This document shows, piece by piece, positions 10,535 to 35,346 of a DNA stretch of 38,871 bases. This DNA is from Candidatus Desulfobacula maris. Its GTDB lineage: Bacteria > Desulfobacterota > Desulfobacteria > Desulfobacterales > Desulfobacteraceae. The stretch covers positions 1 to 38,871 of the forward strand of contig JACNHV010000193.1 in the NCBI GenBank assembly GCA_014383445.1, given 5' to 3'. Position 1 is the stretch's first letter. Every line of letters begins with the position of its first letter. Below the pieces are notes generated by a model. The model was given only the letters and a program-made list of their open reading frames with translations. It did no database searches and was not told where the DNA came from. The translations under genes were made by a program, and so were the position numbers.

Positions 10535-12688
10535 ATGACATCTGCGTTATCAAAATTATTAGCACCTGAATCTGTAGCTATTATCGGGGTTTCTGAAAGC
10601 CCGACACGAATTGGAGGGCGGTTATTCAAGTATCTGACCAAACATGGATATAAAGGGGAGCTGGCCCTGGTGAATCCAAAATATAAAGAACTCAACAATG
10701 TTAAATGTTATCCAACTATTTCAGATGTCCCCATGAAAATTGATTGTGCCCTTGTTGCAGTTCCGGGCAAATTTGTTCTATCTGTATTAAATGAATGTGC
10801 CGATAACAATGTGGGTTCTGCTGTTATTTTCAGCTCCGGGTTTGCCGAAATGGGTAATGATGGGAAAAAAGCCCAGGATAAACTAAAAGAACTGGCCAAA
10901 ACAAAAAACATGAAAATCTGCGGACCAAACTGCATCGGGCTGGTTAATTTCAATGATAATATTGTGCTTTCTTTTTCCCAATTTTTGGAAGTTGATACTC
11001 TTATCCCGGGGAATATAGGATTTATTTCCCAAAGCGGGGCGTTGGGCGGGTCTATGGCTAACCGTGCCCAGGATAACTGCATTGGCTTGAGCTATTTTAT
11101 TTCCAGCGGTAATGAAGCAGACCTTGAAGTATCCGATTATATAAAGCACCTGGTTCTCCATGATGAAAAAACAACTGTTATTGCTACAGTCATAGAAGGA
11201 TTCAAGGATGGTGCAAAATTTATAGAAGCTGCGGAACTTGCCCTTGAGCATGGCAAACCCATCATTGTTTTAAAAATCGGAGAAACCGAAGTCGGTAAAA
11301 AGGCTGCTGCTTCCCATACAGGTTCCCTTACGGGTTCTGACTCTGTTATTGATGCTGTGTTGAACCAGAAAGGTGTTATCAGGGTTCGCAATTATGATGA
11401 ATTATTTCAAACTGCTTCATTATTTTCCAAAGGTAAAATACCAAAAGGAAATAGACTCGGAATCATCAGCAGTTCGGGCGGGGCTGGTATCATTATGGCG
11501 GATCATTATACTAAACTGGGTCTGGTCGTTCCAGAACCGTCCCAAAAGACGATTGACCTTGCATCAAAAGAGATGGCCTCTTTTGGTCAGGTGGCAAATC
11601 CTCTAGATTTAACCGGTCAGATCTTCAGTGACCCAACGATGTTCAAGCGATGCATGAGCCTTTTTATTGAAGAGGACAATTTTGATATTATTCAAGTAAA
11701 CATGTCCATGGTTGCAGGGCAGGGAAGCGTTGACAGGGCTCAACAACTGTTGGAATCTGTGAGAGGCAGCTCAAAACCTGTTGTTGCCTGGTGGGCGGCA
11801 GGAAGCTTGTCTGACCCGGGAATCAAGATATTAAATAACAGTAGCATTGCATCGTTCAGATCTCCTGACAGGTGTGCCATAGCAGTTAAATCTCTTGTCA
11901 AGTATCACCAACAGGCAGAAAGAACTGCAGGAATCATTGACAAAAGTCATACTCCAGATGATTCAATCGATTTAAATCATGCAAAGGCAATATTAGAGAC
12001 TAATGATACAAGCTTGAGCGAACATCAAAGCAAAGAGCTATTGAAACTATACGGCATTCCGGTTACAATAGAAAAATTGGTAAATTCACCTCAAGAAGCA
12101 ATTAGTGTTGCCGAAGAAATTGGATTCCCTGTAGTATTAAAAATTGATTCTCCCGATATACTCCATAAGTCAGAGGCTGATGTCATCAGACTTGGAGTCA
12201 GTTCTATAGAAGAAATAGTCTCATGCTATGAAGAACTTATTGAAAACGCAGTCCGGTATAATTCTCAGGCAAGAATCAACGGTGTTGTTGTTCAGGAAAT
12301 GATACAAGGAGGAACTGAGGTGATTGCCGGCATGTCCTTAGATCCACAGTTTGGACCGACAATTGCTTTTGGATTGGGGGGTATTTTTGTAGAAGTTCTA
12401 AAAGACATATCCTTGCGGGTGACACCTTTATCTGAGCCAGATGCAAAGTCTATGGTGCAAGAAATAAAAGGCTATCCAATACTAAAAGGAATCCGCGGCA
12501 GGGCTCGTGCTGACATTGAAGCTGTTGAAGATTTATTATTAAAACTTTCCCAATTGGCCGAAGACTGGAAAGATTATATTGCTGAGATTGATATCAACCC
12601 GTTGATTGTTCTTGATGAAGGACAAGGAGTAAAAGCATTGGACGCACTGGTTGTTCTAAAAAATAAAGATAAGGAGTCATTATGCTGA
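10535..12688 (+). CDS. ADP-forming acyl-CoA (acetyl-CoA) synthetase, fused alpha-beta
   Basis: A 717-residue protein with the standard fused layout. The CoA-binding domain (about 1-130, SVAIIGVSESPTRIGG) is followed by CoA-ligase domains (about 150-450) and an ATP-grasp beta part (about 490-710, FPVVLKIDSPDILHKSEADV, then FGLGGIFVEVLKD). His261 in AAASHTGSLTGS is the phospho-histidine site. These enzymes convert acyl-CoA, ADP and phosphate into free acid, CoA and ATP, a common energy-conserving last step in anaerobes; the acyl group cannot be predicted. GGAGG precedes the ATG. It is the first gene behind the sigma-54 promoter and overlaps the next gene by 7 bases. By eye it is more AT-rich than the genes after 17 kb. 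Confidence 0.92.
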   Translation: MTSALSKLLAPESVAIIGVSESPTRIGGRLFKYLTKHGYKGELALVNPKYKELNNVKCYPTISDVPMKIDCALVAVPGKFVLSVLNECADNNVGSAVIFSSGFAEMGNDGKKAQDKLKELAKTKNMKICGPNCIGLVNFNDNIVLSFSQFLEVDTLIPGNIGFISQSGALGGSMANRAQDNCIGLSYFISSGNEADLEVSDYIKHLVLHDEKTTVIATVIEGFKDGAKFIEAAELALEHGKPIIVLKIGETEVGKKAAASHTGSLTGSDSVIDAVLNQKGVIRVRNYDELFQTASLFSKGKIPKGNRLGIISSSGGAGIIMADHYTKLGLVVPEPSQKTIDLASKEMASFGQVANPLDLTGQIFSDPTMFKRCMSLFIEEDNFDIIQVNMSMVAGQGSVDRAQQLLESVRGSSKPVVAWWAAGSLSDPGIKILNNSSIASFRSPDRCAIAVKSLVKYHQQAERTAGIIDKSHTPDDSIDLNHAKAILETNDTSLSEHQSKELLKLYGIPVTIEKLVNSPQEAISVAEEIGFPVVLKIDSPDILHKSEADVIRLGVSSIEEIVSCYEELIENAVRYNSQARINGVVVQEMIQGGTEVIAGMSLDPQFGPTIAFGLGGIFVEVLKDISLRVTPLSEPDAKSMVQEIKGYPILKGIRGRARADIEAVEDLLLKLSQLAEDWKDYIAEIDINPLIVLDEGQGVKALDALVVLKNKDKESLC

Positions 12689-13281
12689 TTACAGAGACAT
12701 TTATAGTTGATATAGCCATTCAGAAATTATATAATTTTTTTTTAGATGCCGAAACAGTTGGGACTTGTGTCCCAGGATGTGAAAGTGTGGAAATAGTTGG
12801 TGAGAATGAATATGATAGTATCATCCAGACAAAAGTTGGTATTATTTCTGCAAAATTTAAAATCCGGACCCAGATATCTGAGACAGTCCCTTTTAACTTG
12901 ATCCGTACCATAGGACATGGCAAAGAACTTAGAAATCTGGGGCACTTCAAGCAGAAAACCGAAATAACTCTCAAAGAACTGTCTGAGAACCAAACCGAGG
13001 TATCCTACCAGGCCGAGGTGTCCATTGTCGGCCGGCTGGCAACCTTCGGCGATAGAATTATGAAATCAAAAGCAAAAACCATGAGGAAAGAATTCGCCGA
13101 CTCAGTTAGGGCCAAATTGAATCCCGGACACCCGTCAGATGCGGAGAATACCCAGCAAATTGAATTGTCCGAACAGGCAGAAAGTATATGGAGGCAGGTC
13201 ATCACAACCATTATTGGCAAAATTGGCCAGGCCTTTAAATGGGTCTTTCACTTATGCAGATGCTCTAAAAAATCAACTTAA
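12682..13281 (+). CDS. CoxG-like SRPBCC protein
   Basis: A 199-residue protein. Residues about 1-145 match the CO-dehydrogenase subunit G / polyketide-cyclase-like SRPBCC fold: a beta-rich start (ITETFIVDIAIQKLYNFF), VPGCESVEIVGENEY and VSIVGRLATFGDRI. CoxG-type proteins accompany molybdenum hydroxylases and can anchor them to the membrane. The C-terminal helix (TTIIGKIGQAFKWVFHLC) is amphipathic to hydrophobic and could serve that role. An AAGGAG stands before the ATG, which overlaps the preceding stop, so translation is coupled. It lies directly before the hydroxylase 1 genes, supporting a role with that enzyme. Confidence 0.85.
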   Translation: MLITETFIVDIAIQKLYNFFLDAETVGTCVPGCESVEIVGENEYDSIIQTKVGIISAKFKIRTQISETVPFNLIRTIGHGKELRNLGHFKQKTEITLKELSENQTEVSYQAEVSIVGRLATFGDRIMKSKAKTMRKEFADSVRAKLNPGHPSDAENTQQIELSEQAESIWRQVITTIIGKIGQAFKWVFHLCRCSKKST

Positions 13282-13296
13282 AGCATTGGAGAATCG

Positions 13297-13313
13297 GTAA
13301 GGAGAGACCTTAC
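13297..13313 (+). repeat. Small intergenic hairpin
   Basis: GTAAGG-AGAGA-CCTTAC is a perfect 6-base-pair stem with a 5-base loop in the 119-base gap between the CoxG-like gene and the hydroxylase 1 FAD subunit. No T-run follows. It could be an mRNA processing or stability element; support is weak. Confidence 0.3.
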
Positions 13314-13400
13314 AAAATAAACATTCAAAAAGATAAGCAGTGAACTTTAGATCTGGAATACTATAAACTAAGGATACTTAATTCAGGAGAACTTAAAATT

Positions 13401-14273: not shown

Positions 14274-14361
14274 CCTTTTTTGTTTTTAGGCAATTGCAGG
14301 CAAAACGATACTTTGGTGAACATTTTTGAAATGCAAGATATGGTAGGATAGGAGACTCATT

Positions 14362-14841
14362 ATGGAAAATTTAAGTTTAACGGTCAATGGTGAGCATATT
14401 ACGGCTGAAATCAATCCAGGAACGACTTTACAGAAGTTTCTGTATGATAACCTGGGGTTAACCGGCACCAAGGAAGGTTGCGGCGAAGGATTGTGCGGAT
14501 GCTGCACCGTAAGGGTAGATGGAAAAGCAGTTAAGTCATGTATAATTCTTGCCCTTCAAGCAAGAGGGAAGAATGTTCAAACTATTGAAGGCCTGGCCGA
14601 GGGAGAGAAGTTGGATCTGCTTCAAGAAGCGTTTCTTGATAATGGCGCTTTTCAATGCGGTTATTGTACACCTGGTATGATAATGGCGGGAAAAGCTCAT
14701 TTGGATGAAAATCCAAAACCATCGGAAAAGGATGTAAGACACGCCCTTTCAGGAAACCTTTGTCGTTGCACTGGATACCATAAGATCGTAAAGGCAATCC
14801 TCAGTGTTGATCAAAAAAAAGTAATGGATTTTAAGAAATAG
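14362..14841 (+). CDS. Molybdenum hydroxylase 1, 2Fe-2S subunit
   Basis: A 159-residue small subunit carrying two 2Fe-2S clusters. The plant-ferredoxin-like domain has GCGEGLCGCCTVRVDGKAV followed by the fourth cysteine; the C-terminal helical domain has CGYCTPG and CRCTGY. These relay electrons from the molybdenum site to the FAD subunit. GGAG stands before the ATG at 14362. Only 12 bases separate its stop from the large-subunit start, so the two are co-translated. All eight expected cluster cysteines are present. Confidence 0.96.
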   Translation: MENLSLTVNGEHITAEINPGTTLQKFLYDNLGLTGTKEGCGEGLCGCCTVRVDGKAVKSCIILALQARGKNVQTIEGLAEGEKLDLLQEAFLDNGAFQCGYCTPGMIMAGKAHLDENPKPSEKDVRHALSGNLCRCTGYHKIVKAILSVDQKKVMDFKK

Positions 14842-14853
14842 GGGGTCTGCCAC

Positions 14854-17229
14854 ATGGAAACAAATAATAAATATGAATATATTGGAAAGTCTGAGCGCAA
14901 TGTAAACGGGATAGAAAAAGTTACAGGGGCGGCAAAATATTGTTCGGATATGGAACTTTCCAGAATGCTTTATGGTAAAGTTAAAAGAAGCCCATATCCC
15001 CATGCCAGGATTATTTCCATTGATACATCCAAGGCAAAAGAGTTGCCTGGTGTTAAAGTTGTGATAGTGGGTGACGAAAAGACATGCCCGCATCGCTTCG
15101 GGGCTGGAGTTGCTGATGAATATGTGCTGGCCCGGGACAAGGTTTTGTATGTTGGAGATGCGGTTGCTGCAGTTGCTGCGGAAACCGAGGATATTGCTCA
15201 GGATGCTGTGGATCTTATTGAAGTCGAATATGAAGAGCTTGAGCCAGTGTTTGATGGAGACCAGGCATTCAGTAAAAATCCACCTGCCATTCTTCATGAA
15301 GACTTGAAAAGCTATAAGACGATTCGATCTGTGCCACCCAGATTTGATGAGAATCGCCCCAATGTTTTCAATTACTTCAGGATCAGAAGAAACAACGCTG
15401 AAGAAGCATTTAAAGAAGCAGACATTGTTTTGGAGAACCGGTTTGAGGTGGCAATGATACATCATGTCCAGATGGAGCCACACTGTGGTGTTGCCAAAGT
15501 TGATGGTACTGGAAGACTTATAGTCTGGGGTACTACCTCGAAACCTTATGGTATGCATAAGGATATATCAGAATCAAGGGGAATGGCATCATCTGCAGTA
15601 AGAGTGATCGTTCCCACTCATGTGGGAGGCGCCTTTGGGGGAAGGGAGCCAAAGGCAGAGCAGATTGCCGCCTCACTCGTCCTAGCCCAGAAGGGGCACC
15701 CTAAAAGACCGGTCAAAATGAGATTCACAAGGGAAGAACAACTGAGCACCACAACAACACGTGCAAGGTATATTGTGGAAATCAAGACAGGTGCAAAAAA
15801 AGACGGGACTTTAGTAGCCAATGCGATGAGGACTATTCTTGTGGGAGGCGCTTACGCAGGAACCGGATACTTGACTGCAAGAAACGGTTCTTTTGGACCC
15901 GCAGCAAATTATAAGATACCCAACTTTAGTCTGGATGCCTATGGTGTGTATACCAACCAGCGAATGGCTGGGGCATTCCGTGGATTCGGTAATGCTGAAA
16001 CTCTTTGGGGTATGGAATCTAATATGGATATGTTGGCCGAGGCCTTGAACATTGATCCTTTGGAATTCAGACTCATGAATTGCATAGATGAGGGAGATTT
16101 GAACGCTTTCCAGGAAAAGATGCACAGCGTTGGGGCAAAAGAGTGTCTACAGGCTGCGGCCAGGGACATTGAATGGGGAAAGAAACCCGAAAAGCCAAAA
16201 GAACCCCACTTGAAAATGGGTAAAGGCATAGCCCTTGGCAACAAATATAGTCTTGTGCCGACAGCCTCGGCCTGCTTTATTAAAGTCCACCCGGACGGCT
16301 TGGTTGAATTGAGGACAAGCACAGTAGAACTGGGACAGGGATCAAATACGATTTTTTCCCAGATGATTTCAGAAGAATTCAAGATTCCGGTTTCAATGGT
16401 CAGGGTATTGAATCCCGATACCGATATTACCCCGTTTGATCTGGGCACGGCTTCCAGTCGATCAACCTTTAATATGGGCAATGCAATTCGCAAGGCATGC
16501 GCAGATGCAAAAAAACAATTATTTGAACTTGCAGCCACGGAGTTAGGAGTTGCTGAAGATGTTCTTGAAACAGCTGATTCAAGAGTTTTTGTAAAAGATT
16601 TTCCAGAAAAAAGTCTCCACATCAAAGATCTATTCATACCCATGGTCATAGGAGGTTATACCCTGAAGGAAGGTGCAGAAATCCTTGGTAAAGCAACTTA
16701 TTACCTTCCTGGCGTAATGCCTGATCCTGAGACAGGTGCCTCGGAAAGACCGGCTTCTTTCTATATGTTTGTTGCCCAGGCAGCTGAGGTTGAAGTTGAT
16801 ACGCAAACAGGCAAAATCCGGGTAACAAAAATGGTAACTGCAAATGACTGCGGAAAGGCCATAAATCCGATGATGGTAGAAGGACAACAGGATGGGGGCG
16901 TTCTTAGCATGGGAATTGGAAGTGCCCTGCTTGAAGAGGTAATTACAGATAATGGTGTCATGCTCAACCCGCAGTTTGCTGATTATAAGATACCTACAAC
17001 ACTGGATTGTCCTGATTGTGATAATTACAAGTCCGCTATTATTGAGACAGCCCACAGGGAAGGTCCATGGGGGGCTAAAGGTGTTGGAGAAGGTACAATG
17101 GTATCAAGTGCTCCTGCCATTGCCAATGCCATATATGATGCCATTGGGATAAGATTTCATGAGATTCCCATTACACCTGAAAAAGTTTTAAGAGCATTAA
17201 AGGAAAAAAACCAGGAAAGCCTGGGCTGA
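14854..17229 (+). CDS. Molybdenum hydroxylase 1, molybdopterin-binding catalytic subunit
   Basis: A 791-residue large subunit. It has the N-terminal hammerhead domain (about 20-135, GIEKVTGAAKYCSDM) and molybdopterin regions with VGGAFGGREPKAEQ, GAFRGFGNAE, VELGQGSNTIFSQ and the active-site GAKGVGEGTMV, in which Glu746 corresponds to the catalytic base of xanthine dehydrogenase. The CO-dehydrogenase loop with the Cu-binding cysteine (AYRCSFR) is absent, so this is a hydroxylase acting on an organic substrate, not a CODH. The enzyme inserts oxygen from water into a C-H bond, typically next to a ring nitrogen or on an aldehyde. The substrate is unknown. No XdhC-type maturation gene is in the window. 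Confidence 0.94.
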   Translation: METNNKYEYIGKSERNVNGIEKVTGAAKYCSDMELSRMLYGKVKRSPYPHARIISIDTSKAKELPGVKVVIVGDEKTCPHRFGAGVADEYVLARDKVLYVGDAVAAVAAETEDIAQDAVDLIEVEYEELEPVFDGDQAFSKNPPAILHEDLKSYKTIRSVPPRFDENRPNVFNYFRIRRNNAEEAFKEADIVLENRFEVAMIHHVQMEPHCGVAKVDGTGRLIVWGTTSKPYGMHKDISESRGMASSAVRVIVPTHVGGAFGGREPKAEQIAASLVLAQKGHPKRPVKMRFTREEQLSTTTTRARYIVEIKTGAKKDGTLVANAMRTILVGGAYAGTGYLTARNGSFGPAANYKIPNFSLDAYGVYTNQRMAGAFRGFGNAETLWGMESNMDMLAEALNIDPLEFRLMNCIDEGDLNAFQEKMHSVGAKECLQAAARDIEWGKKPEKPKEPHLKMGKGIALGNKYSLVPTASACFIKVHPDGLVELRTSTVELGQGSNTIFSQMISEEFKIPVSMVRVLNPDTDITPFDLGTASSRSTFNMGNAIRKACADAKKQLFELAATELGVAEDVLETADSRVFVKDFPEKSLHIKDLFIPMVIGGYTLKEGAEILGKATYYLPGVMPDPETGASERPASFYMFVAQAAEVEVDTQTGKIRVTKMVTANDCGKAINPMMVEGQQDGGVLSMGIGSALLEEVITDNGVMLNPQFADYKIPTTLDCPDCDNYKSAIIETAHREGPWGAKGVGEGTMVSSAPAIANAIYDAIGIRFHEIPITPEKVLRALKEKNQESLG

Positions 17230-17306: not shown

Positions 17307-18194
17307 ATGGAATACCGGGAAACAGTCTCAGTCGCCTGTGTTAATTTTTGCCCCGAATGGGGAGACAAGGCAGCTAATTTGTCAAAAATTAAGGCCTTTT
17401 CAAAACAGGCGGCAGATCAGGGCAATAATATTATCATTTTCCCGGAACTTGCCCTTACCGGCTATGAATGCGGTGAGATGACTGATCCAGATGGCAAATC
17501 CTGTGGTATGCATAAAAAAATGGCTGAGACGATTCCAGGACCTATCACTTGCGAAATCAAAGATCTGGCCCGAAAACTGGATGTTTATATTATTTTTGGA
17601 ATGCCGGAAAAAGATATAACCCACCCGGACATCCTTTATATTTCATCGGTTATTGTTGGTCCTGAAGGGCTGTTGGGTACCTATAGAAAACTGCACCTTG
17701 CACCTCTGCCCCGGTTTACAGAGAGTCTTTGCTTTACACCGGGAAATGAAATCCCGGTCTTTGAAACCCGGTACGGGACCATTGGTATTCTCATCTGTTT
17801 TGATTTTTACTTTTACCCTGAACTGGCACGGATTATGGCCCTGAAAGGGGCGGATTTGCTTGTAAATACCTCGGCCAGCGCCACAGGTCCCGGCAAACCT
17901 TACTTCATCGTACAGCAGACCGGAAGCCGGGCAACGGAAAACTGTGTCTATGCCGCCAGTGCAAACCTGGTCGGAAAGGAGCGGTCAAACTCTTATTATG
18001 GACACAGCGTTATTGCAGGCCCCCTTACCCCCAGGCCAGCCTTTATTTTTGCCGAGGGTGGGGAAACCGAAGAAATCGTCAGTGCCACACTCAGTTTAAA
18101 AAAACTTCGTGTCCGAAAAGAACAGCTCAATTGGCAAAAAGACCGTCAAACTGAATTGATTAACGCAGAACTTGCCCGTTTAAAGAATAATTGA
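17307..18194 (+). CDS. Carbon-nitrogen hydrolase (nitrilase superfamily amidase)
   Basis: A 295-residue enzyme with the complete Glu-Lys-Cys triad: Glu47 in FPELALTGYE, Lys128 in YRKLHLAPLP and Cys164 in ILICFDFYFYPE. Members hydrolyse amides, N-carbamoyl amino acids or, rarely, nitriles; the motif context fits an amidase or carbamoylase better than a true nitrilase. AAGGA stands before the ATG. It sits between hydroxylase 1 and the CoA-transferase-like gene, and a hydantoinase-like gene is 5 kb downstream. A sequential ring-opening then deamidating pair, as in reductive pyrimidine breakdown (dihydropyrimidinase then beta-ureidopropionase), is a reasonable inference. Confidence 0.9.
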   Translation: MEYRETVSVACVNFCPEWGDKAANLSKIKAFSKQAADQGNNIIIFPELALTGYECGEMTDPDGKSCGMHKKMAETIPGPITCEIKDLARKLDVYIIFGMPEKDITHPDILYISSVIVGPEGLLGTYRKLHLAPLPRFTESLCFTPGNEIPVFETRYGTIGILICFDFYFYPELARIMALKGADLLVNTSASATGPGKPYFIVQQTGSRATENCVYAASANLVGKERSNSYYGHSVIAGPLTPRPAFIFAEGGETEEIVSATLSLKKLRVRKEQLNWQKDRQTELINAELARLKNN

Positions 18195-24656: not shown

Positions 24657-24740
24657 AGAAGGCCATATCCTGTTAATTTCGATAACTATGAATAATAAAT
24701 GTTTTAGATCATTAATTAAGATAAACCTAAGGAGATAGTG

Positions 24741-26614: not shown

Positions 26615-27094
26615 ATGGTAAAAAAATATCCGGTCCGGGTCAATGTAAACGGTGACGATTATGAAGCTCTGGTTGACCCGAGAAAGACATTGCTCCAATT
26701 TTTACGGGAGGACCTTGATTTAACAGGAACCAAGGAAGGTTGTGATGAAGGAGATTGCGGGGCCTGTTCCGTCATTCTCAACAACAGGGTCGTCAGTTCC
26801 TGCCTGGTTTTGGCCGTGGAAGTTGATAATGCCGTAATCGAGACCATTGAAGGGGTAAAAACAGGGGAAGAACTGCATCCGGTCCAGCAGGCCTTTGTGG
26901 ACAGCGGAGCTATCCAGTGCGGTTTTTGTACACCCGGAATGGTCATCACAACAAAAGCCATGCTCCAGGAGATGCCGAATCCCTCAACAAAGGAGGTTAA
27001 AGAGTATTTAGCAGGAAATCTGTGCCGGTGCACCGGCTATGTTAAAATTCTTGATGCCGTTGAAAACGCCAAAGAAAAATTAAAAAATGGATAA
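26615..27094 (+). CDS. Molybdenum hydroxylase 2, 2Fe-2S subunit
   Basis: A 159-residue small subunit, the same length as in set 1. The ferredoxin-type cluster motif is GCDEGDCGACSVILNNRVV plus a following cysteine; the second cluster uses CGFCTPG and CRCTGY. It carries electrons from the molybdenum subunit to the FAD subunit. GGGAG precedes the ATG. The next gene either overlaps its stop (ATG 27087) or begins 16 bases later (ATG 27111). Confidence 0.96.
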   Translation: MVKKYPVRVNVNGDDYEALVDPRKTLLQFLREDLDLTGTKEGCDEGDCGACSVILNNRVVSSCLVLAVEVDNAVIETIEGVKTGEELHPVQQAFVDSGAIQCGFCTPGMVITTKAMLQEMPNPSTKEVKEYLAGNLCRCTGYVKILDAVENAKEKLKNG

Positions 27095-27110
27095 GAAGGG
27101 GGCACTTACA

Positions 27111-29384
27111 ATGGACAATTACTCTGTGATCGGAAAACGGATCAAAAACAGGGATGCCGTGACCAAGGTTACAGGCAAGGCTGTTTTTGCTGCAGATATA
27201 AAGTTAAAAGGAATGCTCTACGGCAAAATTCTCAGATCCAAGGCGGCCCATGCCAGAATCCTGAGCATTGATGTTTCAGAGGCCCGGCAACTTAAAGGGG
27301 TAAAGGCGGTTATCACCTGTGAGGATACCCCCTTGATAAAATACAGCATTCATCCTTTAATGGCCGACAAACTTGCATTTGAAGATAAGAAAGTCAGATA
27401 TATCGGTGATGAAATAGCCGCAGTAGCAGCTGTGGATGAAGCCACTGCAATCAAAGCATTGTCCTTGATCAAAGTTGACCTGGAAGAACTTGAAGGCTTG
27501 TTTGACCCTGTTGAAGCTATGAAAGAAGGAGCACCCAAAATCCATGACCATCTTGAAACAAATGTTTCCAAACATTTTAAGATGGATTGCGGAGATATTG
27601 AACAAGGGTTTGCAAGGTCAGATTTTATTATCGAAAAAACATTTACCACCCATGCCCAGTCCCATTCCAGCATTGAAACCCATGCCTGTGTCGCAGATTG
27701 TGGTCTGGACAACCAGGTCACTATGTGGGTCAATACCCAGGCACCTCACCCATTAAAGCATAGAATCTCCCAGGTCCTTGCCATTGAACCGGAAAAAATT
27801 CGTGTCATCCCACCCTATATTGGCGGCGGTTTCGGCAGCAAAATCGACCTGGATACCACCCATATCGCCTGTGTATTGCTTTCTAAAAAAACGGGTCGAC
27901 CGGTTAAAATAATCAACACACGTGAAGAGCAGTTCACTGCAACAAGGATGCGGCACCCATCCATTACTGAATTAAAGTTCGGGTTCAATCATGACGGAAC
28001 CATTGTTGCAAAACAGGCAAGGGCAATCATTGACAATGGTGCCTATAACAGCCATGGACCATCCGTCATGGGCTACCATAACGTCATGTTTTCTTCACTT
28101 TATCGTGTTGAGAACATATCATACGAAGGCTCTCTGGTTTATACAAACAAGAATTACGGAGGAGCATGCAGGGGCTATGGCGATCCCCAGGCAACATTTG
28201 CCCAGGAAACAATGATGGACATGATTGCCGAAAAATTGGATATGGACCCCATAGAATTAAGACTGAAAAATTCTAATCATCCGGATGAAAAGACGGCAAA
28301 CGCCGTAGAAATAACAAGCTGCGGTCTGACTGAGACCCTTGAAGCTGTTAAAAAAGCGTCCAACTGGTCCGAAAAAAAGAAGACCAAGAAAAAATATAGA
28401 GGCCTGGGCGTTGCATCCATGATCTATACCGGGGGGGGCAGCAGGGGGTCCGGGTTTAATTACTCTGGAGCCACTATGAAAATGGATGCTTCCGGAACCA
28501 TCTTTTTGAATACTGGAGCAACCGATATCGGCCAGGGATCAAATACAACGCTTACTATGATAGCGGCCGAAATACTCGGGATGGAGCCGGAACAGATCCG
28601 ACTTATAACATCTGATACAGATACCACATTGCCCTGCATGGGCACTTTTGGTTCACGGGTGACATTCTGTGCTGGAAATGCAGTGTCCCAGGCCGCCCTT
28701 AATCTCAAAGAGAAAATTATAGCCCGGGCCGCCGATATATTGGGGGAACCGGTTGTGCGCCTGGAGATCAAAGCGCGTAATGTCTGTGTCGCACAAGAAC
28801 CCGAAAAAGGAATCGCTTTTTCACAGATCGGTGCTGTTTCTTATTCCCAAAAGCAAGAGGTATTGACAGGAGCAGGATATTATGACGGACCCGAGATCGC
28901 CAAGGATTTTGATCCGAAAAGCTATTATGCTTACCCCGGACCTGCCATGTCCTTTGCCACCCACCTGGCCGAAGTAGAAGTTGATCCTGAAAGCGGCAGG
29001 GTGGAATTAATCAATTTTTATGCTGCCCATGATTCAGGCAAAGTGATCAACCCGCTTTTGGCAGAAGGACAGATAGAAGGAGGTGCAGTCATGGGTTTTG
29101 GCTGGGCCTTAACTGAAGAGTTAAAATTTGAAAACGGCAGAATACTGAACCCGAATTTTCATGATTATAAGCTTTTTTCCATCAAAGACATCCCTCAGAT
29201 TACCCCGATACTGGTGGAAACCATCGACCCTAACGGTCCTTTCGGGGCAAAAGGGTTGGGAGAATGTGCCATGGTTTCAACAGCACCGGCAATTTTAAAC
29301 GCCATCTGTGATGCTGTAGGGGTAAGGATTTGTGACCTTCCTGCCACATCGGAAAAAGTTTTTAACCATATTAAATTAAAATAA
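27111..29384 (+). CDS. Molybdenum hydroxylase 2, molybdopterin-binding catalytic subunit
   Basis: A 757-residue large subunit from ATG 27111, which follows the purine run AAGAAGGGGG. An upstream ATG at 27087 would add eight residues, but the protein aligned from MDNYSVIGKR matches the start of its set 1 counterpart better. It has the hammerhead domain (DAVTKVTGKAVFAAD), IGGGFGSKIDLDTTH, GGACRGYGDPQATFAQE, TDIGQGSNTTLT and GAKGLGECAMV, with catalytic Glu718. The substrate-pocket segment differs from set 1 (ACRGYGDPQ against AFRGFGNAE), so a different substrate or ring position is likely. It lacks the CODH signature loop. Confidence 0.94.
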   Translation: MDNYSVIGKRIKNRDAVTKVTGKAVFAADIKLKGMLYGKILRSKAAHARILSIDVSEARQLKGVKAVITCEDTPLIKYSIHPLMADKLAFEDKKVRYIGDEIAAVAAVDEATAIKALSLIKVDLEELEGLFDPVEAMKEGAPKIHDHLETNVSKHFKMDCGDIEQGFARSDFIIEKTFTTHAQSHSSIETHACVADCGLDNQVTMWVNTQAPHPLKHRISQVLAIEPEKIRVIPPYIGGGFGSKIDLDTTHIACVLLSKKTGRPVKIINTREEQFTATRMRHPSITELKFGFNHDGTIVAKQARAIIDNGAYNSHGPSVMGYHNVMFSSLYRVENISYEGSLVYTNKNYGGACRGYGDPQATFAQETMMDMIAEKLDMDPIELRLKNSNHPDEKTANAVEITSCGLTETLEAVKKASNWSEKKKTKKKYRGLGVASMIYTGGGSRGSGFNYSGATMKMDASGTIFLNTGATDIGQGSNTTLTMIAAEILGMEPEQIRLITSDTDTTLPCMGTFGSRVTFCAGNAVSQAALNLKEKIIARAADILGEPVVRLEIKARNVCVAQEPEKGIAFSQIGAVSYSQKQEVLTGAGYYDGPEIAKDFDPKSYYAYPGPAMSFATHLAEVEVDPESGRVELINFYAAHDSGKVINPLLAEGQIEGGAVMGFGWALTEELKFENGRILNPNFHDYKLFSIKDIPQITPILVETIDPNGPFGAKGLGECAMVSTAPAILNAICDAVGVRICDLPATSEKVFNHIKLK

Positions 29385-29444: not shown

Positions 29445-30665
29445 ATGAACAAAACACTGGGAAACATTAAAGTCATCGAACTGGCCCAATATATTTCAGG
29501 GCCTTTCTGCGGGATGCTTCTTGCAGGCCTGGGTGCAAATGTAACTAAAATAGAACCCCCTGAAGCCGGAGATATCTCCAGGAGATGCGGCCCTTTTCCC
29601 GATGACATTCCCCATACGGACAGGAGTGGATTATTTCACTATTTAAACCGGAATAAAAAAGGAATTACCCTCGACATCAGGAAGCCGACCGGCAGACAAA
29701 TTTTCATAGAACTGCTCAAGGATGCCGATGTTTTGATAGAAGATCTGCCACCAAACCTTGCAAAGGAGCTGAAACTTGATTTCGCAACCTTGCGTGAAAT
29801 CAACCCGAAACTAAACGTGATTTCCATCACGCCCTTTGGCCAGACAGGTCCTTACAGGGACTATAAGGCCTATGCAATCAATGCCAGTGCCCTGGGCGGA
29901 ATGAGTTCCATTGTGGGTGATCCTAAAAGAGAACCTTTAACCCCTCCTTTCTCCATGGGTAATTTCCAGACAGGGGTCATTGCATCCAATGCCATCATTT
30001 CTGCCCTGATGGCCGGTATGAAAATAAACAGGGGCCAGCAAATTGATATTTCAGAGGCAGAGTCCTGGTCCATTTTTCATACGGGCAACGTGGTTTCCGC
30101 ATTTGTATATGGCGGGCGGAAAAGAACCAGGTCCGGCCACAGAACATTTGCCCCTTACCCCTATACTTTGCTTCCCTGCAAGGACGGCTATATTTCTATG
30201 ATTGCCCTTCGGGGATCTGAATGGAAAAGGTTTCTGGAGATTATGGGAGACGGAAAGATACCGGAATGGTATGCATCGGACGAGCGGTTCAAGGACAGGG
30301 CCAAGGCGGGAAGAGAACACAGTGAAGTCCTTGACAATCTTTTGTCCCCCTGGCTCATGTCTCATACAAGGGAAGAAATTTTCAACAAATGCCGGGAAAA
30401 ACATGTACCGTTTATGCCGGTAAGAAACATGGATGAAGTTGTTAATTGTGAGCACTTAAATAAACGGGAATACTTTGATACCATAAAATTGACCGGCACC
30501 AACGGGTTTAAATGTCCGGGCGCCCCCGTGAGATTTTCCCAAAGCCACTGGGAATTAAATGATACAGCCCCCTCTTTATCAGCGCACAACCATGAGGTAT
30601 TTTGCGAAGAATTAGAGTACTCAAAAGAGGAACTGGTTCAACTGAGAAGGACCGGTACTATTTAA
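29445..30665 (+). CDS. CaiB/BaiF (class III) CoA-transferase 2, catalytic Asp replaced by Asn
   Basis: A 406-residue family III CoA-transferase-like protein with GNIKVIELAQYISGPFCG, LAGLGANVTKIEPPEAGD, RNKKGITLDIRKPTGR and the C-terminal SAHNHEVFCEEL. The catalytic segment, GDxxxG in the family, reads SMGNFQTGV here, so Asn173 replaces the aspartate that forms the acyl anhydride and CoA thioester. The codon is AAT, unambiguous in this sequence. It might be inactive as a transferase, work after deamidation, or act as a lyase, racemase or structural partner. AGGAG precedes the ATG. It begins the CoA section of the cluster (two crotonases and a ligase follow). Confidence 0.88.
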   Translation: MNKTLGNIKVIELAQYISGPFCGMLLAGLGANVTKIEPPEAGDISRRCGPFPDDIPHTDRSGLFHYLNRNKKGITLDIRKPTGRQIFIELLKDADVLIEDLPPNLAKELKLDFATLREINPKLNVISITPFGQTGPYRDYKAYAINASALGGMSSIVGDPKREPLTPPFSMGNFQTGVIASNAIISALMAGMKINRGQQIDISEAESWSIFHTGNVVSAFVYGGRKRTRSGHRTFAPYPYTLLPCKDGYISMIALRGSEWKRFLEIMGDGKIPEWYASDERFKDRAKAGREHSEVLDNLLSPWLMSHTREEIFNKCREKHVPFMPVRNMDEVVNCEHLNKREYFDTIKLTGTNGFKCPGAPVRFSQSHWELNDTAPSLSAHNHEVFCEELEYSKEELVQLRRTGTI

Positions 30666-30731
30666 TTGGGGCCATATTGGAAAATAAATAAACAACTGTG
30701 GCGCGCACCCCTAAAACCAGGAACATGAACA

Positions 30732-31499
30732 ATGCGTTATGAGATTTTGTCATTTCACAGGGAAAACAGGGTGATGGTAATCCAGTTGCATGGCAATGGA
30801 ACCTGTTATGGGGAACCGGTCCAAATTGCCAACGAACTCAATGAACTTTGCAATACCATTTATCCTGACCCGGAAATCCAGGTGGTCATCATCAATCTGG
30901 AACAGACCGGGTGGCAGAATAAACTTACTTTGAGTCAAACCATTTTGAACACTGATCCGGCAAGAGATAACCCCATGTCCTGGGCTGAGCCTGTGTCAAA
31001 GCTTGAAATTCCGGTTATCATGTCCATCAACGGATATGCCCTGGGCCAGGCCCTGGAGCTGGCCCTTGCCTGTGACATGAGAGTTGCCTCCCATGCTTCT
31101 TTTTTCGGGCTGCCCCATATCAATGACGACATAATCCCATGGGACGGGGGTACACAGCGATTATCCAGGTTGATTGGAAAAAGCAATGCCATGGAAATGC
31201 TCTTTACCGGACAAACCATAAACGGGGAAGAGGCCCTTCGAATGGGGCTGGTAAATCAGCTTATTGAAGGCAAGGCGCTTTTGTCCAAGGTCATGGAAAC
31301 AGCACAGAAAATAGCCGGCAAAGGCCCCATTGCCTTGAAATATACAAAGGAAGCGGTCAACAAAGGGATGGATTTAACCATGGATCAGGCTCTGAACCTG
31401 GAAGCCGACCTTTATTTTTTACTGCACACCAGCCATGACCGGACCGAGGGAATCAAAGCATTTCAGGAAAAGAGAAAAGCCCGGTTCAGTGGAGAATAA
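30732..31499 (+). CDS. Enoyl-CoA hydratase/isomerase-family protein (crotonase 2)
   Basis: A 255-residue crotonase of normal length. The oxyanion-hole segment INGYALGQALELALACD keeps the first catalytic glutamate (in LEL). At the second position, usually PE, it has FGLPHIN, so histidine replaces glutamate. The N-terminal beta-strand region is divergent: the usual RP/KP N-A-L motif is not evident. Isomerase, hydrolase or decarboxylase activity is possible. It is followed after 11 bases by crotonase 3, with AAGGAGG between, so the two are co-translated and may act in sequence or as a pair. Confidence 0.85.
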   Translation: MRYEILSFHRENRVMVIQLHGNGTCYGEPVQIANELNELCNTIYPDPEIQVVIINLEQTGWQNKLTLSQTILNTDPARDNPMSWAEPVSKLEIPVIMSINGYALGQALELALACDMRVASHASFFGLPHINDDIIPWDGGTQRLSRLIGKSNAMEMLFTGQTINGEEALRMGLVNQLIEGKALLSKVMETAQKIAGKGPIALKYTKEAVNKGMDLTMDQALNLEADLYFLLHTSHDRTEGIKAFQEKRKARFSGE

Positions 31500-31510
31500 A
31501 GGAGGGGCAT

Positions 31511-32248
31511 ATGAGTGGATTTGAGACATTAATCTATGAAAAAACAGACAGGATAGCCTATGTGACAATTAACCGTCCCAAGGCAATGAATGCATATAAT
31601 ATACAGATGCGCGATGATCTCTACCAAATTTTGAGTGCCATCAAGGATGACCCTGACGTATATGTTGTTATTTTTAAAGGAACCGGAGAAAAGGCATTTT
31701 GCGCAGGTGCGGATTTAAGTGAGTTTCTCACTGCCCCCTCTCCCATTGCCGCCCGTAAGGTTCGCTTCGAAAGAGATGTCTGGGGGCTTTTTTTAAGCAT
31801 ACCCCAGCCTATAATCGCCGCCCTTCACGGCTATGTCCTGGGTTCCGGAATCGAGATAGCCCTGTGCTGTGATATTCGAATCGCTTCAAGAAATACCAGA
31901 TTTGGTCTTCCTGAGGTTGGCCTGGGGATGATTCCTGCTGCCGGCGGAACCCAGACCCTTCCGCGTACTGTGGGGAAATCAAAGGCCCTTGAAATGCTTC
32001 TCACGGACGAGTGGATCGACGGGGAGGAAGCTTTCAGGATCGGGCTGGTTAACCATGTGGTATCTGATGATACACTTTATGACCATGCTAATGAGATGGC
32101 CCGGAAGATTGCTTCCCATGATCCGGCTGCTGTCAGGGCTGCCAAACAGGCAGTGGTCCGGGGCATGGATGTCAGGCTTTCAGAAGGCCTTTTCCTTGAA
32201 AAGAGCCTTGCCTCACATCTTTCAGCAATCAAAAACAAACAACCTTAA
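31511..32248 (+). CDS. Enoyl-CoA hydratase (crotonase 3)
   Basis: A 245-residue crotonase with every hydratase landmark: VTINRPKAMNAYN, AFCAGADLSEF, the oxyanion hole, and both catalytic glutamates, in LGSGIEIALCCD and GLPEVGLGMIPAAGG. It is the only one of the three crotonases in the cluster with both glutamates, so it is the best candidate for a conventional 2-enoyl-CoA hydratase. A strong AAGGAGG lies before the ATG. Its end is 25 bases from the acyl-CoA ligase start. Confidence 0.92.
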   Translation: MSGFETLIYEKTDRIAYVTINRPKAMNAYNIQMRDDLYQILSAIKDDPDVYVVIFKGTGEKAFCAGADLSEFLTAPSPIAARKVRFERDVWGLFLSIPQPIIAALHGYVLGSGIEIALCCDIRIASRNTRFGLPEVGLGMIPAAGGTQTLPRTVGKSKALEMLLTDEWIDGEEAFRIGLVNHVVSDDTLYDHANEMARKIASHDPAAVRAAKQAVVRGMDVRLSEGLFLEKSLASHLSAIKNKQP

Positions 32249-32273
32249 ATATTAATATCCAGATGAGGTAAAT

Positions 32274-33839
32274 ATGAATACAACCGTTTTTCTAAATATT
32301 GCCACCGCAATCTGTCCGGACCGGGACATAATCTCCTTTGAAGGGAAGCATTATAGTTTCGCCCTGCTGAATGAACGAAGCAACAGACTGGCCAATGCTT
32401 TGGCAGGGTTAGGCGTTAAGCATGGTGACCGAGTCGGCATGCTGGAGGTGAACTGCAACCAGCATATCGAAGTTTATTTTGCAACGGCCAAACTAGGGGC
32501 TATCTTTGTTCCTATCAATTTCAGGGCCAAGGCAGATGAGGTTTCCTACATGCTGGATAATGCGAAGATAAAGGTATTGTTTGCCGGAAGCCGGTATATC
32601 CAGATGCTGGATACCATCCTGCCAAAGCTTTCCTTTATTGAAAACTGCGTATCAACAGACAAAAAACTTGACGGAACACTCGCCTATGAGACACTGGTCA
32701 GCTCTTCTGTACCCGATGAAGTTGCTGCCGACATCGGGGATGAAGATATCACCATTTTAATGTATACAGCAGGAACTACTGGACGTCCGAAAGGTGTGCC
32801 GTTAAGGCATAGTGCTTTTGCCGGCTATGTGATAGGCAATGTAGAGCCTGCTAACCCGATTGTTGAAGAACGAAATCTGCTCAGCGTACCTCTGTACCAT
32901 ATTGCAGGTATTCAGGCCATGCTGGCGGCTGTTTACGGAGGGCGAACCCTGGTTCTCATACGTCAGTTTGAAGTCAAAGAATGGATGAGAATTATTCAGG
33001 AAGAAAAGGTCTCCCGGACCATGCTCGTCCCGACCATGTTAAAATGGGTACTGGATGACCCTGATTTTGATCATGCCGACCTGTCCAGTCTTAAAGTTAT
33101 CACTTACGGCTCGGCTTCCATGCCTTTTGCGGTCATCAAATCAGCCATTGAAAAAATGCCCTGGGTCAAATTTATAAATGCCTTTGGCCAGACTGAAACC
33201 GCATCTACCATAACGGTCCTGGGCCCGGATGACCATGTAATAGAAGGCACTGAAGAAGAAAAGGAAAAAAAGCTCAAACGGCTGTCGGCATCCATAGGTA
33301 AGCCGCTGTCTGATGTACAAATAAAAATTGTTGATGAAAGCGGCCAATCCCTGCCTTACAACGCGGTCGGTGAAATTCTGGCAAAGGGTGCCAGGATTAT
33401 GTCCGGGTACTGGAAGGATGATGAAAAAACAGCCCGGGCCAAGACCAAAGACGGCTGGTTGAAAACAGGAGACAAAGGCTGGGTTGACGAGGACGGTTAT
33501 GTCTTTCTTGCCGGCCGGGGTGATGACATGATCATCCGGGGCGGGGAGAACATTTCCCCTGAAGAGGTGGAGGATGTACTGCATTCCCACCCTGATATAG
33601 AGGAAACCGCAGTCATCGGGATACCTGACCCTGAATGGGGGCAGGAGCCCTGTGCCGTGGTGACGTTGAAAAATGGGAAGACAACCACAGCCGAAGAGAT
33701 CATGGAATATTGCCGTTCAAGGCTGGCCGGGTTTAAACGGCCCAGACAAGTAATTTTTGTGGAAAGTCTGCCCCGCAATACCATGGGAAAGGTACTTAGG
33801 AAAGAACTTAGAACTAATTATGAACAACTGTCAAAATAG
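32274..33839 (+). CDS. AMP-forming acyl-CoA ligase
   Basis: A 521-residue ANL-superfamily ligase. The ATP-binding loop is MYTAGTTGRPKGVP; other motifs are YGSASMP, NAFGQTETAS, GWLKTGDKGWVDEDG and the hinge LAGRGDDMIIRGGENI. The C-terminal catalytic lysine is in NTMGKVLRKEL. It activates a carboxylic acid to an acyl-CoA at the cost of ATP to AMP. The substrate may be an aryl, alicyclic or fatty acid, and the pocket residues do not decide. It may activate the imported compound or the ring-opened acid, while the ADP-forming synthetase at the start of the cluster would work in the ATP-yielding direction. Confidence 0.93.
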   Translation: MNTTVFLNIATAICPDRDIISFEGKHYSFALLNERSNRLANALAGLGVKHGDRVGMLEVNCNQHIEVYFATAKLGAIFVPINFRAKADEVSYMLDNAKIKVLFAGSRYIQMLDTILPKLSFIENCVSTDKKLDGTLAYETLVSSSVPDEVAADIGDEDITILMYTAGTTGRPKGVPLRHSAFAGYVIGNVEPANPIVEERNLLSVPLYHIAGIQAMLAAVYGGRTLVLIRQFEVKEWMRIIQEEKVSRTMLVPTMLKWVLDDPDFDHADLSSLKVITYGSASMPFAVIKSAIEKMPWVKFINAFGQTETASTITVLGPDDHVIEGTEEEKEKKLKRLSASIGKPLSDVQIKIVDESGQSLPYNAVGEILAKGARIMSGYWKDDEKTARAKTKDGWLKTGDKGWVDEDGYVFLAGRGDDMIIRGGENISPEEVEDVLHSHPDIEETAVIGIPDPEWGQEPCAVVTLKNGKTTTAEEIMEYCRSRLAGFKRPRQVIFVESLPRNTMGKVLRKELRTNYEQLSK

Positions 33840-33855
33840 AGAAGGAGTGTTAAAA

Positions 33856-33972
33856 ATGGCAAACGAAATCGGAAAACAATACACCTGTAAAAAATGTGGC
33901 ATCATGCTTGTTGTTACCAAGGGTGGCAAAGGCCAGATAAAGTGCTGTGGCCAACCAATGGAAACAAAATAA
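33856..33972 (+). CDS. Desulforedoxin-like small iron protein 1
   Basis: A 38-residue protein starting at ATG 33856, nine bases after AAGGAG. It has Cys11-x2-Cys14 and the adjacent pair Cys30-Cys31, with 15 residues between the pairs. This is exactly the spacing in Desulfovibrio desulforedoxin, whose four cysteines bind a single Fe. The N-terminus MANEIGKQYTCKKCG and the end CCGQPM also resemble desulforedoxin. It is a stand-alone domain, not the N-terminus of a desulfoferrodoxin. Directly behind the acyl-CoA ligase, it is probably translated from the same mRNA and could carry single electrons for one of the redox enzymes of the cluster (inference). Confidence 0.88.
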   Translation: MANEIGKQYTCKKCGIMLVVTKGGKGQIKCCGQPMETK

Positions 33973-33991
33973 TTAAAGAAAGGAGTGAAAA

Positions 33992-34132
33992 ATGGTCCAA
34001 ATGGGAAAAAGATATAAATGTGAGGAATGTGGTACGGAAGCACTGTGTACAAAAGTCGGTGAAGGCCAGCCGATCTGTTGTGAAAAGGAGATGGAAGTTT
34101 TAGAGCCAAAAGCTCTCCCCTCTTCTGATTGA
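33992..34132 (+). CDS. Desulforedoxin-like small iron protein 2
   Basis: A 46-residue protein starting at ATG 33992 after AAGGAGTG, 19 bases behind the first small protein. Cysteines are at 10, 13, 29 and 30, the same 15-residue spacing as its neighbour and as desulforedoxin. After the CC pair it has a longer acidic, proline-containing tail instead of the usual CGxxM end. The two proteins are clearly related but diverged, so an old tandem duplication or a heterodimeric pair is possible. Desulforedoxin is a dimer, which makes the second idea reasonable. It ends 165 bases before the second TRAP operon. Confidence 0.85.
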   Translation: MVQMGKRYKCEECGTEALCTKVGEGQPICCEKEMEVLEPKALPSSD

Positions 34133-35344: not shown

Positions 35345-35346
35345 AG

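What the first reader, a model, noticed from the sequence alone, without database searches (positions are those of the whole stretch)
10535..34132. Candidate anaerobic N-heterocycle (or cyclic amide) degradation cluster
One strand carries two complete molybdenum hydroxylases, an ene-reductase-like flavoenzyme, a hydantoinase-like amidohydrolase with its full metal site, a nitrilase-family amidase, a CoA-transferase-fold protein, two CaiB/BaiF proteins, three crotonases, a CoA ligase and an ADP-forming acyl-CoA synthetase. From family knowledge this order of chemistry (hydroxylate, reduce, hydrolyse C-N, activate, beta-oxidise, recover ATP) fits ring nitrogen compounds such as nicotinate, quinoline or indole types. 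Sulfate reducers are known to degrade these, but the full gene sets are poorly described. I recognise no characterised pathway with this exact combination. The substrate is inference.
Basis: partly seen in the sequence, partly recalled or inferred. Interest (0 to 1): 0.8.

Follow-up and report, generated by a model that had tools for sequence, protein, structure and literature searches.

The report
Anaerobic N-methyl heterocycle breakdown gene cluster
A bacterium related to marine anaerobes carries a large, apparently jointly controlled set of genes that looks built to strip methyl groups from a nitrogen-containing ring compound, open the ring without oxygen and harvest the pieces; the exact compound is not known and nothing has been tested in the laboratory.

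Summary
The unit is larger than reported. Upstream, on the other strand, lie a sigma-54 activator, an HMG-CoA-lyase-like protein, a non-pyrrolysine MttB methyltransferase and a TRAP transporter. Sigma-54-type promoters precede the operon, mttB and the lyase; an activator palindrome accompanies the first two. The motif pair recurs in the same genome before an acyl-CoA dehydrogenase and a second mttB, which in a sister species lie on the cluster's contig. Modules recur in other families. Best reading: a regulon for an N-methylated N-heterocyclic carboxylate (homarine/trigonelline class): corrinoid demethylation, hydroxylation, reduction, hydrolytic ring opening, CoA-bound breakdown. Five enzymes lack a signature catalytic residue of their family, so 'activate, beta-oxidise' is not secure. 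Defining features of the nicotinate, indoleacetate and reductive pyrimidine gene sets are missing. Substrate and reactions are inference.

The parts
2842..4158 (-). TRAP large permease DctM1
   Evidence: Pfam PF06808; syntenic in G054, 98%, and G039
4148..4663 (-). TRAP small permease DctQ1
   Evidence: Pfam PF04290
4765..5805 (-). TRAP solute-binding protein DctP1
   Evidence: Pfam PF03480
5925..7367 (-). MttB1: non-pyrrolysine MttB-superfamily corrinoid methyltransferase (no in-frame TAG)
   Evidence: Pfam PF06253; translation; best solved relatives glycine betaine methyltransferase 9yce/2qne; TIGR02369 427.9 bits, below its cut-off 525
7488..7503 (-). sigma-54-type promoter upstream of mttB1 (TGGCATCAGAATTGCA)
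   Evidence: 10 of 11 positions
7576..7592 (.). activator palindrome TGTATATATAGTAAACA upstream of mttB1
   Evidence: 11 of 12 positions
7682..8629 (-). HMG-CoA-lyase-like protein; metal-site HxH kept, loop Cys absent
   Evidence: Pfam PF00682; alignment of 8 sequences
8729..8744 (-). sigma-54-type promoter upstream of hmgl (TGGCACAATTTATGCT)
   Evidence: 10 of 11 positions; same in G038, 9 of 11 in G054 and G039
8815..10179 (-). sigma-54 dependent activator
   Evidence: Pfam PF00158, PF02954
10214..10230 (.). activator palindrome TGTTTAATAACTAAACA
   Evidence: 12 of 12; 12 of 12 in G054 and G038, 11 of 12 in G678 and G714
10304..10319 (+). sigma-54-type promoter of the operon (TGGCATAAGATTTGCA)
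   Evidence: identical in G054 and G038; TGGCATAGGGATTGCA in G678 and G714
10535..12688 (+). NDP-forming acyl-CoA synthetase (fused)
12682..13281 (+). CoxG-like protein (Mo-hydroxylase maturation type)
   Evidence: Pfam PF06240
13401..14273 (+). Mo-hydroxylase 1, FAD subunit
14362..14841 (+). Mo-hydroxylase 1, [2Fe-2S] subunit
14854..17229 (+). Mo-hydroxylase 1, Mo subunit (GVGEG motif)
17307..18194 (+). nitrilase-fold amidase, triad E47 K128 C164
   Evidence: Pfam PF00795
18279..19988 (+). fused glutaconate-CoA-transferase-fold protein without the presumed catalytic Glu
20002..21957 (+). OYE/BaiCD-type Fe-S flavoenzyme (ene-reductase-like)
   Evidence: CxxCxxC at residue 345
22064..23272 (+). 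CaiB1 (family III CoA-transferase, Asp kept)
23289..24656 (+). hydantoinase/dihydropyrimidinase-type amidohydrolase
24738..25637 (+). crotonase 1 (first catalytic Glu replaced by Tyr, 6 of 6 aligned)
25703..26560 (+). Mo-hydroxylase 2, FAD subunit
26615..27094 (+). Mo-hydroxylase 2, [2Fe-2S] subunit
27087..29384 (+). Mo-hydroxylase 2, Mo subunit (GLGEC motif)
29445..30665 (+). CaiB2 (family III fold, Asn in place of Asp)
30732..31499 (+). crotonase 2 (second catalytic Glu replaced by His, 2 of 2 aligned)
31511..32248 (+). crotonase 3 (both catalytic Glu; ordinary enoyl-CoA hydratase type)
32274..33839 (+). AMP-forming acyl-CoA ligase
34298..37236 (+). second TRAP transporter DctPQM2 (458 bp gap before it)
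   Evidence: orthologues (62-69%) beside hmgl in G678

Best explanation
It is one sigma-54-controlled catabolic regulon for an N-methylated N-heterocyclic carboxylate, most likely of the N-methylpyridinium type (homarine or trigonelline class). Proposed order, every step inferred from family chemistry: TRAP uptake of the acid; removal of the N-methyl group by MttB1 (and MttB2) with a corrinoid protein; activation to a CoA thioester by the CoA ligase or the CaiB1/CaiB2 pair; hydroxylation of ring carbons next to N by the two Mo-hydroxylases; reduction of a ring double bond by the OYE-type enzyme; hydrolytic opening of the resulting cyclic amide or imide by the hydantoinase; release of ammonia by the nitrilase-fold amidase; carbon-chain cleavage by the altered crotonases, the GCT-fold protein and the lyase-like protein, then ordinary beta-oxidation (crotonase 3, acyl-CoA dehydrogenase, 3-hydroxyacyl-CoA dehydrogenase); ATP gain through the NDP-forming acyl-CoA synthetase. 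Shown: gene content, conservation, shared motifs, residue losses. Not shown: any substrate, reaction or protein-DNA binding.
For: Same promoter and activator motifs before the operon and mttB1, promoter also before hmgl. In the own genome, of 25 palindrome sites examined (of 27 with at most 1 mismatch), the five with a sigma-54 site of at least 10 of 11 at 60-200 bp all lie in the window or on contig C395: before the operon, mttB1, an acyl-CoA dehydrogenase and mttB2. The C395 genes are on the cluster's contig in G054. Activator orthologue in 4 of 26 genus genomes; in a class-wide sample of 389 the lyase was found in those same four of the genus; all four have mttB1. Outside the genus, G678 and G714 carry hmgl (72-74%), the activator (64-65%) and mttB1 (71%; partial in G714), with both motifs before mttB1; in G714 a corrinoid protein follows hmgl directly and the acyl-CoA dehydrogenase (81%) is divergent from mttB1. 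The order ctfI-oye-caiB1-hyd-ech1-xdh2 is kept in whole or part in G054, G678, L012, L013, L014. Cyclic imidase followed by amidase is a known nicotinate route in a fungus (PMC9304392, passages). Homarine was up to 3% of particulate carbon in ocean samples (PMC8269262, abstract and passages).
Against: mttB1, nit and Mo-hydroxylase 1 orthologues were not found in G480, G481 and G482, which carry part of the core; these bins look fragmentary, so the absence is weak. The promoter count alone is not decisive: 3 sites seen, mean 1.1, 19 of 200 dinucleotide shuffles reach 3. The palindrome with up to 1 mismatch is not enriched genome-wide (27 against 42 for the reversed control), and before hmgl in the window only a weak 10 of 12 match exists, a score expected 2.5 times by chance. 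No gene identifies pyridine rather than imidazole or another ring. The Mo subunits score best against 4-hydroxybenzoyl-CoA reductase among solved structures, which would fit a CoA thioester but no particular ring. The route does not explain why ctfI, caiB2, ech1, ech2 and hmgl lack signature residues.
Confidence: 0.45

Rival explanations
1. The operon degrades a non-methylated N-heterocycle; mttB is a co-regulated but separate route for a co-occurring betaine.
For: G480-G482 carry core genes without detectable mttB1. The chemistry of the core does not need a methyl transfer.
Against: Shared motifs and conserved adjacency or co-occurrence of mttB1, hmgl and activator in six genomes of three genera.
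Confidence: 0.22
2. The substrate is an imidazole betaine (hercynine/ergothioneine or a methylimidazole acid): the two Mo-hydroxylases oxidise two ring carbons to a hydantoin, the hydantoinase opens it and the nitrilase-fold enzyme removes the carbamoyl group.
For: The hydantoinase is closest to hydantoinases/dihydropyrimidinases, with a hit to a hydantoin-5-propionate amidohydrolase model (241.9 bits, cut-off 650); the amidase is closest to an archaeal nitrilase, also called beta-ureidopropionase, and N-carbamoylputrescine amidase models. L016 has a distantly similar hydantoinase-amidase pair (45% and 33%).
Against: Does not call for two CaiB pairs, several crotonases, an acyl-CoA dehydrogenase and a lyase; the amidase is not in the most widely shared core (none found in the 441 bp before ctfI in L013).
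Confidence: 0.15
3. An aliphatic quaternary amine (carnitine-like) pathway: CaiB, crotonase, acyl-CoA dehydrogenase, ligase and MttB handle the betaine, and the Mo-hydroxylases oxidise aldehydes.
For: MttB, CaiB, crotonase and acyl-CoA dehydrogenase types occur in known carnitine systems (recalled); the acyl-CoA dehydrogenase has a below-cut-off hit to crotonobetainyl-CoA dehydrogenase (207.8 bits, cut-off 540), though acryloyl-CoA reductase scores higher (353, cut-off 640).
Against: Does not explain the hydantoinase, the amidase and the OYE enzyme.
Confidence: 0.08
4. A composite of two or more pathways brought together by transfer, without one substrate.
For: Window and G054 proteins are 93-99% identical from nit to acs (xdhA2 89-95%, in two pieces), but 68-90% from acd to xdhA1, so the parts have different histories. 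The cluster is sporadic in the genus. Core genes occur without the other module in G480-G482 as far as found.
Against: One set of promoter/activator motifs, near-continuous gene spacing, and recurrence of both modules in G678.
Confidence: 0.1

Closest known systems
Nicotinate fermentation of Eubacterium barkeri (and the related Azorhizobium route)
   Same: Mo-hydroxylase, partial saturation of the ring, then hydrolytic C-N opening (PMC9304392, passages; gene details recalled).
   Different: No B12 mutase seen in the window ORFs scanned; CoA enzymes, an amidase, a second Mo-hydroxylase and MttB are added; the reductase is of OYE type.
Fungal nicotinate (hxn) pathway
   Same: Cyclic imidase followed by an amide hydrolase (PMC9304392, passages).
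   Different: The imidase there is related to peptidoglycan deacetylase/PuuE proteins and the amidase to FAAH (same passages); not an anaerobic CoA route.
Anaerobic indoleacetate pathway (iaa)
   Same: Mo-hydroxylase, lactam opening and CoA enzymes (recalled).
   Different: Its lactamase belongs to the ATP-dependent hydantoinases (PMC5214803, passages) and it uses a mutase (recalled); neither is among the window ORFs scanned. A separate locus in this genus carries those gene types (L088).
Reductive pyrimidine degradation
   Same: Ene reduction, dihydropyrimidinase, ureidopropionase-like amidase (recalled).
   Different: The reductase is OYE type, not PreTA; Mo-hydroxylases and CoA enzymes are added.
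Non-pyrrolysine MttB betaine demethylases (MtgB, MtcB, MtyB)
   Same: MttB domain, no in-frame TAG; MtgC/MtbC-like corrinoid protein next to hmgl in G714.
   Different: Only distantly similar to the solved ones (239 bits at best); here tied to a ring-degrading gene set.

Membership tests
E. barkeri-type nicotinate pathway | Mo-hydroxylase for the ring | tested here: met
   Two complete hydroxylases by family; activity not tested
E. barkeri-type nicotinate pathway | hydrolytic ring opening by an amidohydrolase (enamidase) | tested here: inconclusive
   Amidohydrolase present but closest to hydantoinases
E. barkeri-type nicotinate pathway | coenzyme B12 mutase in the cluster (recalled) | tested here: not met
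   No such domain in the 31 window ORFs scanned by Pfam
Anaerobic indoleacetate pathway | ATP-dependent hydantoinase HyuA/HyuB | tested here: not met
   The hydantoinase here matches PF01979; PF01968/PF02538 were found at L088 instead
Reductive pyrimidine pathway | PreTA-type dihydropyrimidine dehydrogenase | tested here: not met
   The ene-reductase-like gene is PF00724/PF07992; no PreTA-type match in the window ORFs scanned
Hydantoinase/dihydropyrimidinase family | binuclear metal site with carbamylated Lys | tested here: met
   H61 H63 K147 H193 H248 D319, 9 of 9 rows
MttB superfamily, non-pyrrolysine | MttB domain without in-frame TAG | tested here: met
MttB superfamily, non-pyrrolysine | methyl transfer from a quaternary amine to a corrinoid protein | not testable with these tools
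   Needs an assay
Family I CoA-transferase (glutaconate CoA-transferase type) | catalytic Glu in the beta half (role recalled) | tested here: not met
   Two-residue deletion removes it in 4 of 4 cluster orthologues; kept in 16 of 18 distant homologues aligned
Family III CoA-transferase (CaiB/BaiF) | catalytic Asp (role recalled) | tested here: inconclusive
   Met in CaiB1 (6 of 6), not met in CaiB2 (Asn in the window, His in L013)
HMG-CoA lyase | catalytic Cys in the flexible loop (recalled) | tested here: not met
   Absent at that place in 8 of 8 aligned; metal HxH kept
Sigma-54 regulon | -24/-12 promoter with upstream palindrome and a sigma-54 activator gene | tested here: met
   by sequence only, and the promoter count alone is within chance

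The most novel reading that the evidence does not exclude
This is the first gene set for oxygen-free breakdown of homarine or trigonelline: B12-dependent N-demethylation followed by a CoA-bound version of pyridine ring hydroxylation, reduction and hydrolytic opening, in which a glutaconate-CoA-transferase fold that lost its catalytic glutamate, two altered crotonases and a cysteine-less HMG-CoA-lyase relative carry out new C-C or C-N cleavages.
Probability: 0.22. Interest if true: 0.82.

Novelty: new variant of a known kind. Interest (0 to 1): 0.6.

Why it matters
Homarine is reported as up to 3% of particulate carbon in ocean samples (PMC8269262, abstract and passages), and my searches (listings of open-licence papers only) showed no paper on its fate without oxygen. 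If this regulon serves such compounds it would give a marker for their turnover in anoxic sediment, and would link methyl-group metabolism with ring degradation in one organism. It also offers several members of known enzyme families that lack signature residues as candidates for new chemistry.

Tried and rejected
Quinoline/indole types: not favoured, because genes of the ATP-dependent lactamase and mutase types are at a different locus in the genus (L088).

Plasmid relatives: of the hydantoinase, 41 records, none at 60% identity or more; of crotonase 1, 4 records, none at 60% or more. I mapped window proteins on three of these places (L022-L024): no Mo-hydroxylase match in any; L023 has CaiB, crotonase and ligase relatives (27-34%) beside the crotonase, L022 one CaiB relative, L024 only the hydantoinase.

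Structure of the GCT-fold protein: model too poor to use (mean pLDDT 40.4, 3-sequence alignment); no fold search was run and the second structure job was not used.

At first I read the Mo subunit of hydroxylase 1 in G678 as truncated and its modules as scattered over the chromosome; one search showed 100-N scaffold gaps, so both ideas, and a claim of regulation in trans in G678, were dropped.

Rfam at gathering scores: no match. Neighbours of GCT-fold homologues (19 stretches): acyl-CoA ligase relatives in several; L067 has it beside hmgl and activator homologues (47%); no other stretch showed a Mo-hydroxylase or hydantoinase match.


Full report
What is there. The window is the whole of contig C6 of a 4.85 Mb genome in 400 contigs, 94.2% complete. 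From 10535 to 33839 eighteen + strand genes run with gaps of -8 to 119 bp: acd, coxG, xdhBCA1, nit, ctfI, oye, caiB1, hyd, ech1, xdhBCA2, caiB2, ech2, ech3, acs; after 458 bp a TRAP transporter follows.

The unit is larger. On the other strand, upstream, are a sigma-54 activator, an HMG-CoA-lyase-like gene (hmgl), an MttB-type methyltransferase gene (mttB1) and a TRAP transporter. Scanning both strands for -24/-12 promoters gives three sites of 10 or more of 11: before acd, hmgl and mttB1, each in the right direction. By number alone this is not remarkable (0.7 expected at score 10 in 20 base shuffles; mean 1.1 in 200 dinucleotide shuffles, 19 of which reach three). Position and conservation carry the weight: the acd promoter is identical in G054 and G038 and similar in G678 and G714; the mttB1 promoter is conserved in G054 and G039. 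A palindrome TGTTTA-N5-TAAACA stands about 90 bp before the acd and mttB1 promoters. Before hmgl the window has only a weak 10 of 12 match; G714 has a 12 of 12 palindrome there; in G678 the nearest pair (palindrome 11 of 12, promoter 9 of 11) stands before the genes that precede hmgl on its strand.

In the own genome 27 palindrome sites have at most one mismatch, against 42 for the reversed control, so the motif alone is not enriched. I examined 25 of the 27 (3 in the window; 22 others; C3 and C372 were not examined). Five have a promoter of 10 or more of 11 at 60-200 bp: two in the window, and three on contig C395, where two share the promoter of an acyl-CoA dehydrogenase gene and one stands before a second mttB. 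One more (C180) has a weak promoter (9 of 11); the other 19 have none at that threshold.

C395 carries caiB3, caiB4, a nitroreductase, an amidohydrolase, the acyl-CoA dehydrogenase, mttB2, a crotonase and a small ORF (the DUF2889 match of the small ORF's relative was made on the G054 copy). In G054 the same genes, plus a 3-hydroxyacyl-CoA dehydrogenase, follow acs on the cluster's own 43 kb contig. In the window's genome the link between C6 and C395 is inferred.

Distribution. Hydantoinase at E up to 1e-90: 3 of 86 family genomes (own, 99%, 97%). At E up to 1e-100: 2 of 395 sampled phylum genomes, the own one and a 45% relative without cluster genes in the 4.3 kb seen. A scan of named genome contigs gave 12 loci: five with 64% or more identity and cluster neighbours (L010-L014; L010 and L011 match the G039 and G054 contigs in length and content), and seven with 45% or less and no cluster, of which L016 has an adjacent amidase relative and L020 distant lyase and CaiB relatives. 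L014 is labelled Chromatiales; no hydroxylase 2 Mo subunit was found in its bin, so mis-binning is possible.

Activator: 4 of 26 genus genomes. hmgl at E up to 1e-70: 7 of 389 class genomes, those four plus G714 (74%), G678 (72%) and G721 (46%). Eight genomes were searched for mttB1 at E up to 1e-80: G038, G678 and G714 have it (92%, 71%, 71%), G721, G335, G480, G481, G482 do not. G038 has mttB1-hmgl-activator divergent from acd-coxG-xdh1, where its contig ends. G678 has nitroreductase (54%), hmgl, TRAP2, a molybdopterin oxidoreductase, activator, acd, coxG and hydroxylase 1 on one gap-free piece, and nit-ctfI-oye-caiB1-hyd-ech1-xdhB2 (52-79%) on another. G678 is a gap-joined scaffold, so order between pieces means nothing. 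Hydroxylase 1 and amidase orthologues were not found in G480-G482, and no amidase match lies in the 441 bp before ctfI in L013. The most widely shared core is thus ctfI-oye-caiB1-hyd-ech1-xdh2; amidase, hydroxylase 1, mttB and lyase are associated parts.

Residues. Hydantoinase ligands and the amidase triad are intact. In the GCT-fold protein the segment with the presumed catalytic Glu is kept in 16 of 18 distant homologues aligned (of 20 places fetched) but shortened by two residues in 4 of 4 cluster orthologues. Its solved relatives include glutaconate CoA-transferase (1poi), 5mzw and 6coj; the last two are recalled as a decarboxylase and a ring-cleaving hydrolase that do not work as transferases. 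The lyase-like protein lacks the loop Cys in 8 of 8. Crotonase 1 lacks the first Glu (6 of 6), crotonase 2 the second (2 of 2), crotonase 3 has both; CaiB1 and CaiB4 have Asp, CaiB2 (Asn; His in L013) and CaiB3 (Tyr) do not, which recalls heterodimeric family III transferases. Names from family models therefore overstate what is known.

Mechanism. Family chemistry (recalled): Mo-hydroxylases put oxygen from water next to ring N; OYE enzymes reduce conjugated C=C; hydantoinase-fold enzymes hydrolyse cyclic amides, imides and ureides; MttB proteins move methyl groups from amines to corrinoids. With the shared motifs, the best reading is an N-methylated ring acid. An amidase after the hydantoinase would fit an imide (two hydroxylations flanking N), as in the fungal nicotinate route with imidase and amidase (PMC9304392, passages). 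That suits trigonelline (both alpha carbons free) better than homarine, while abundance in the sea favours homarine (PMC8269262, abstract and passages: homarine 0.6-67 nM in particles, trigonelline 1-300 pM in transect samples). A hydantoin reading with carbamoyl release is the main chemical rival. I cannot choose between rings from sequence.

Known systems. At least one defining feature each of the E. barkeri nicotinate, indoleacetate and reductive pyrimidine gene sets was tested and not met in the window. A different locus with two Mo-hydroxylase Mo subunits on one contig was listed for 11 of 26 genus genomes; in G053, the one run through Pfam, it has the indoleacetate-type genes. Ten paper searches listed no description of the present combination; I saw listings, and passages of three papers; only open-licence papers are covered, so this is not proof of novelty.

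Noticed in passing
L088 (G053:C79:5000-24999); pairs also on contigs of ten other genus genomes: A second locus with two Mo-hydroxylases; in G053 it carries a methylmalonyl-CoA-mutase-type mutase with a B12-binding protein, hydantoinase A and B, a CoA ligase and a TRAP transporter, i.e. an indoleacetate-like gene set with an extra Mo-hydroxylase.
   Followed up: partly
window 10535-17229 against L007: Protein identity to G054 is 68-90% over acd-xdhA1 but 93-99% over most of nit-acs, as if the first module had been exchanged or evolves faster.
   Followed up: no
L011 13868-16164 (G054 xdhA2): The Mo subunit of hydroxylase 2 is split over two overlapping frames in G054 (frameshift or assembly error).
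   Followed up: no
L014 3185-3982: A YqeB gene (selenium-dependent Mo cofactor maturation, 359.5 bits, cut-off 220) lies between caiB1 and hyd, hinting at a selenium-containing cofactor in that version.
   Followed up: no
L147 (G000:C99:12000-24000): A separate set of mttB (29%), corrinoid protein, sigma-54 activator and TRAP relatives, with a pterin-binding-type ORF named by eye; the perfect palindrome there lies inside a permease ORF without a promoter at the threshold used.
   Followed up: partly
L067 (G335:C21:20000-38000): Distant GCT-fold, hmgl and activator homologues beside 3-hydroxyacyl-CoA dehydrogenase and acyl-CoA dehydrogenase relatives and, by eye, thiolase and succinyl-CoA synthetase ORFs; the association may be older than the ring pathway.
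   Followed up: no
window 182-673 and 37608-38870: HicB-like antitoxin gene near one contig end; an ORF with ParB-like and DNA-methylase domains, cut by the contig end, at the other.
   Followed up: no
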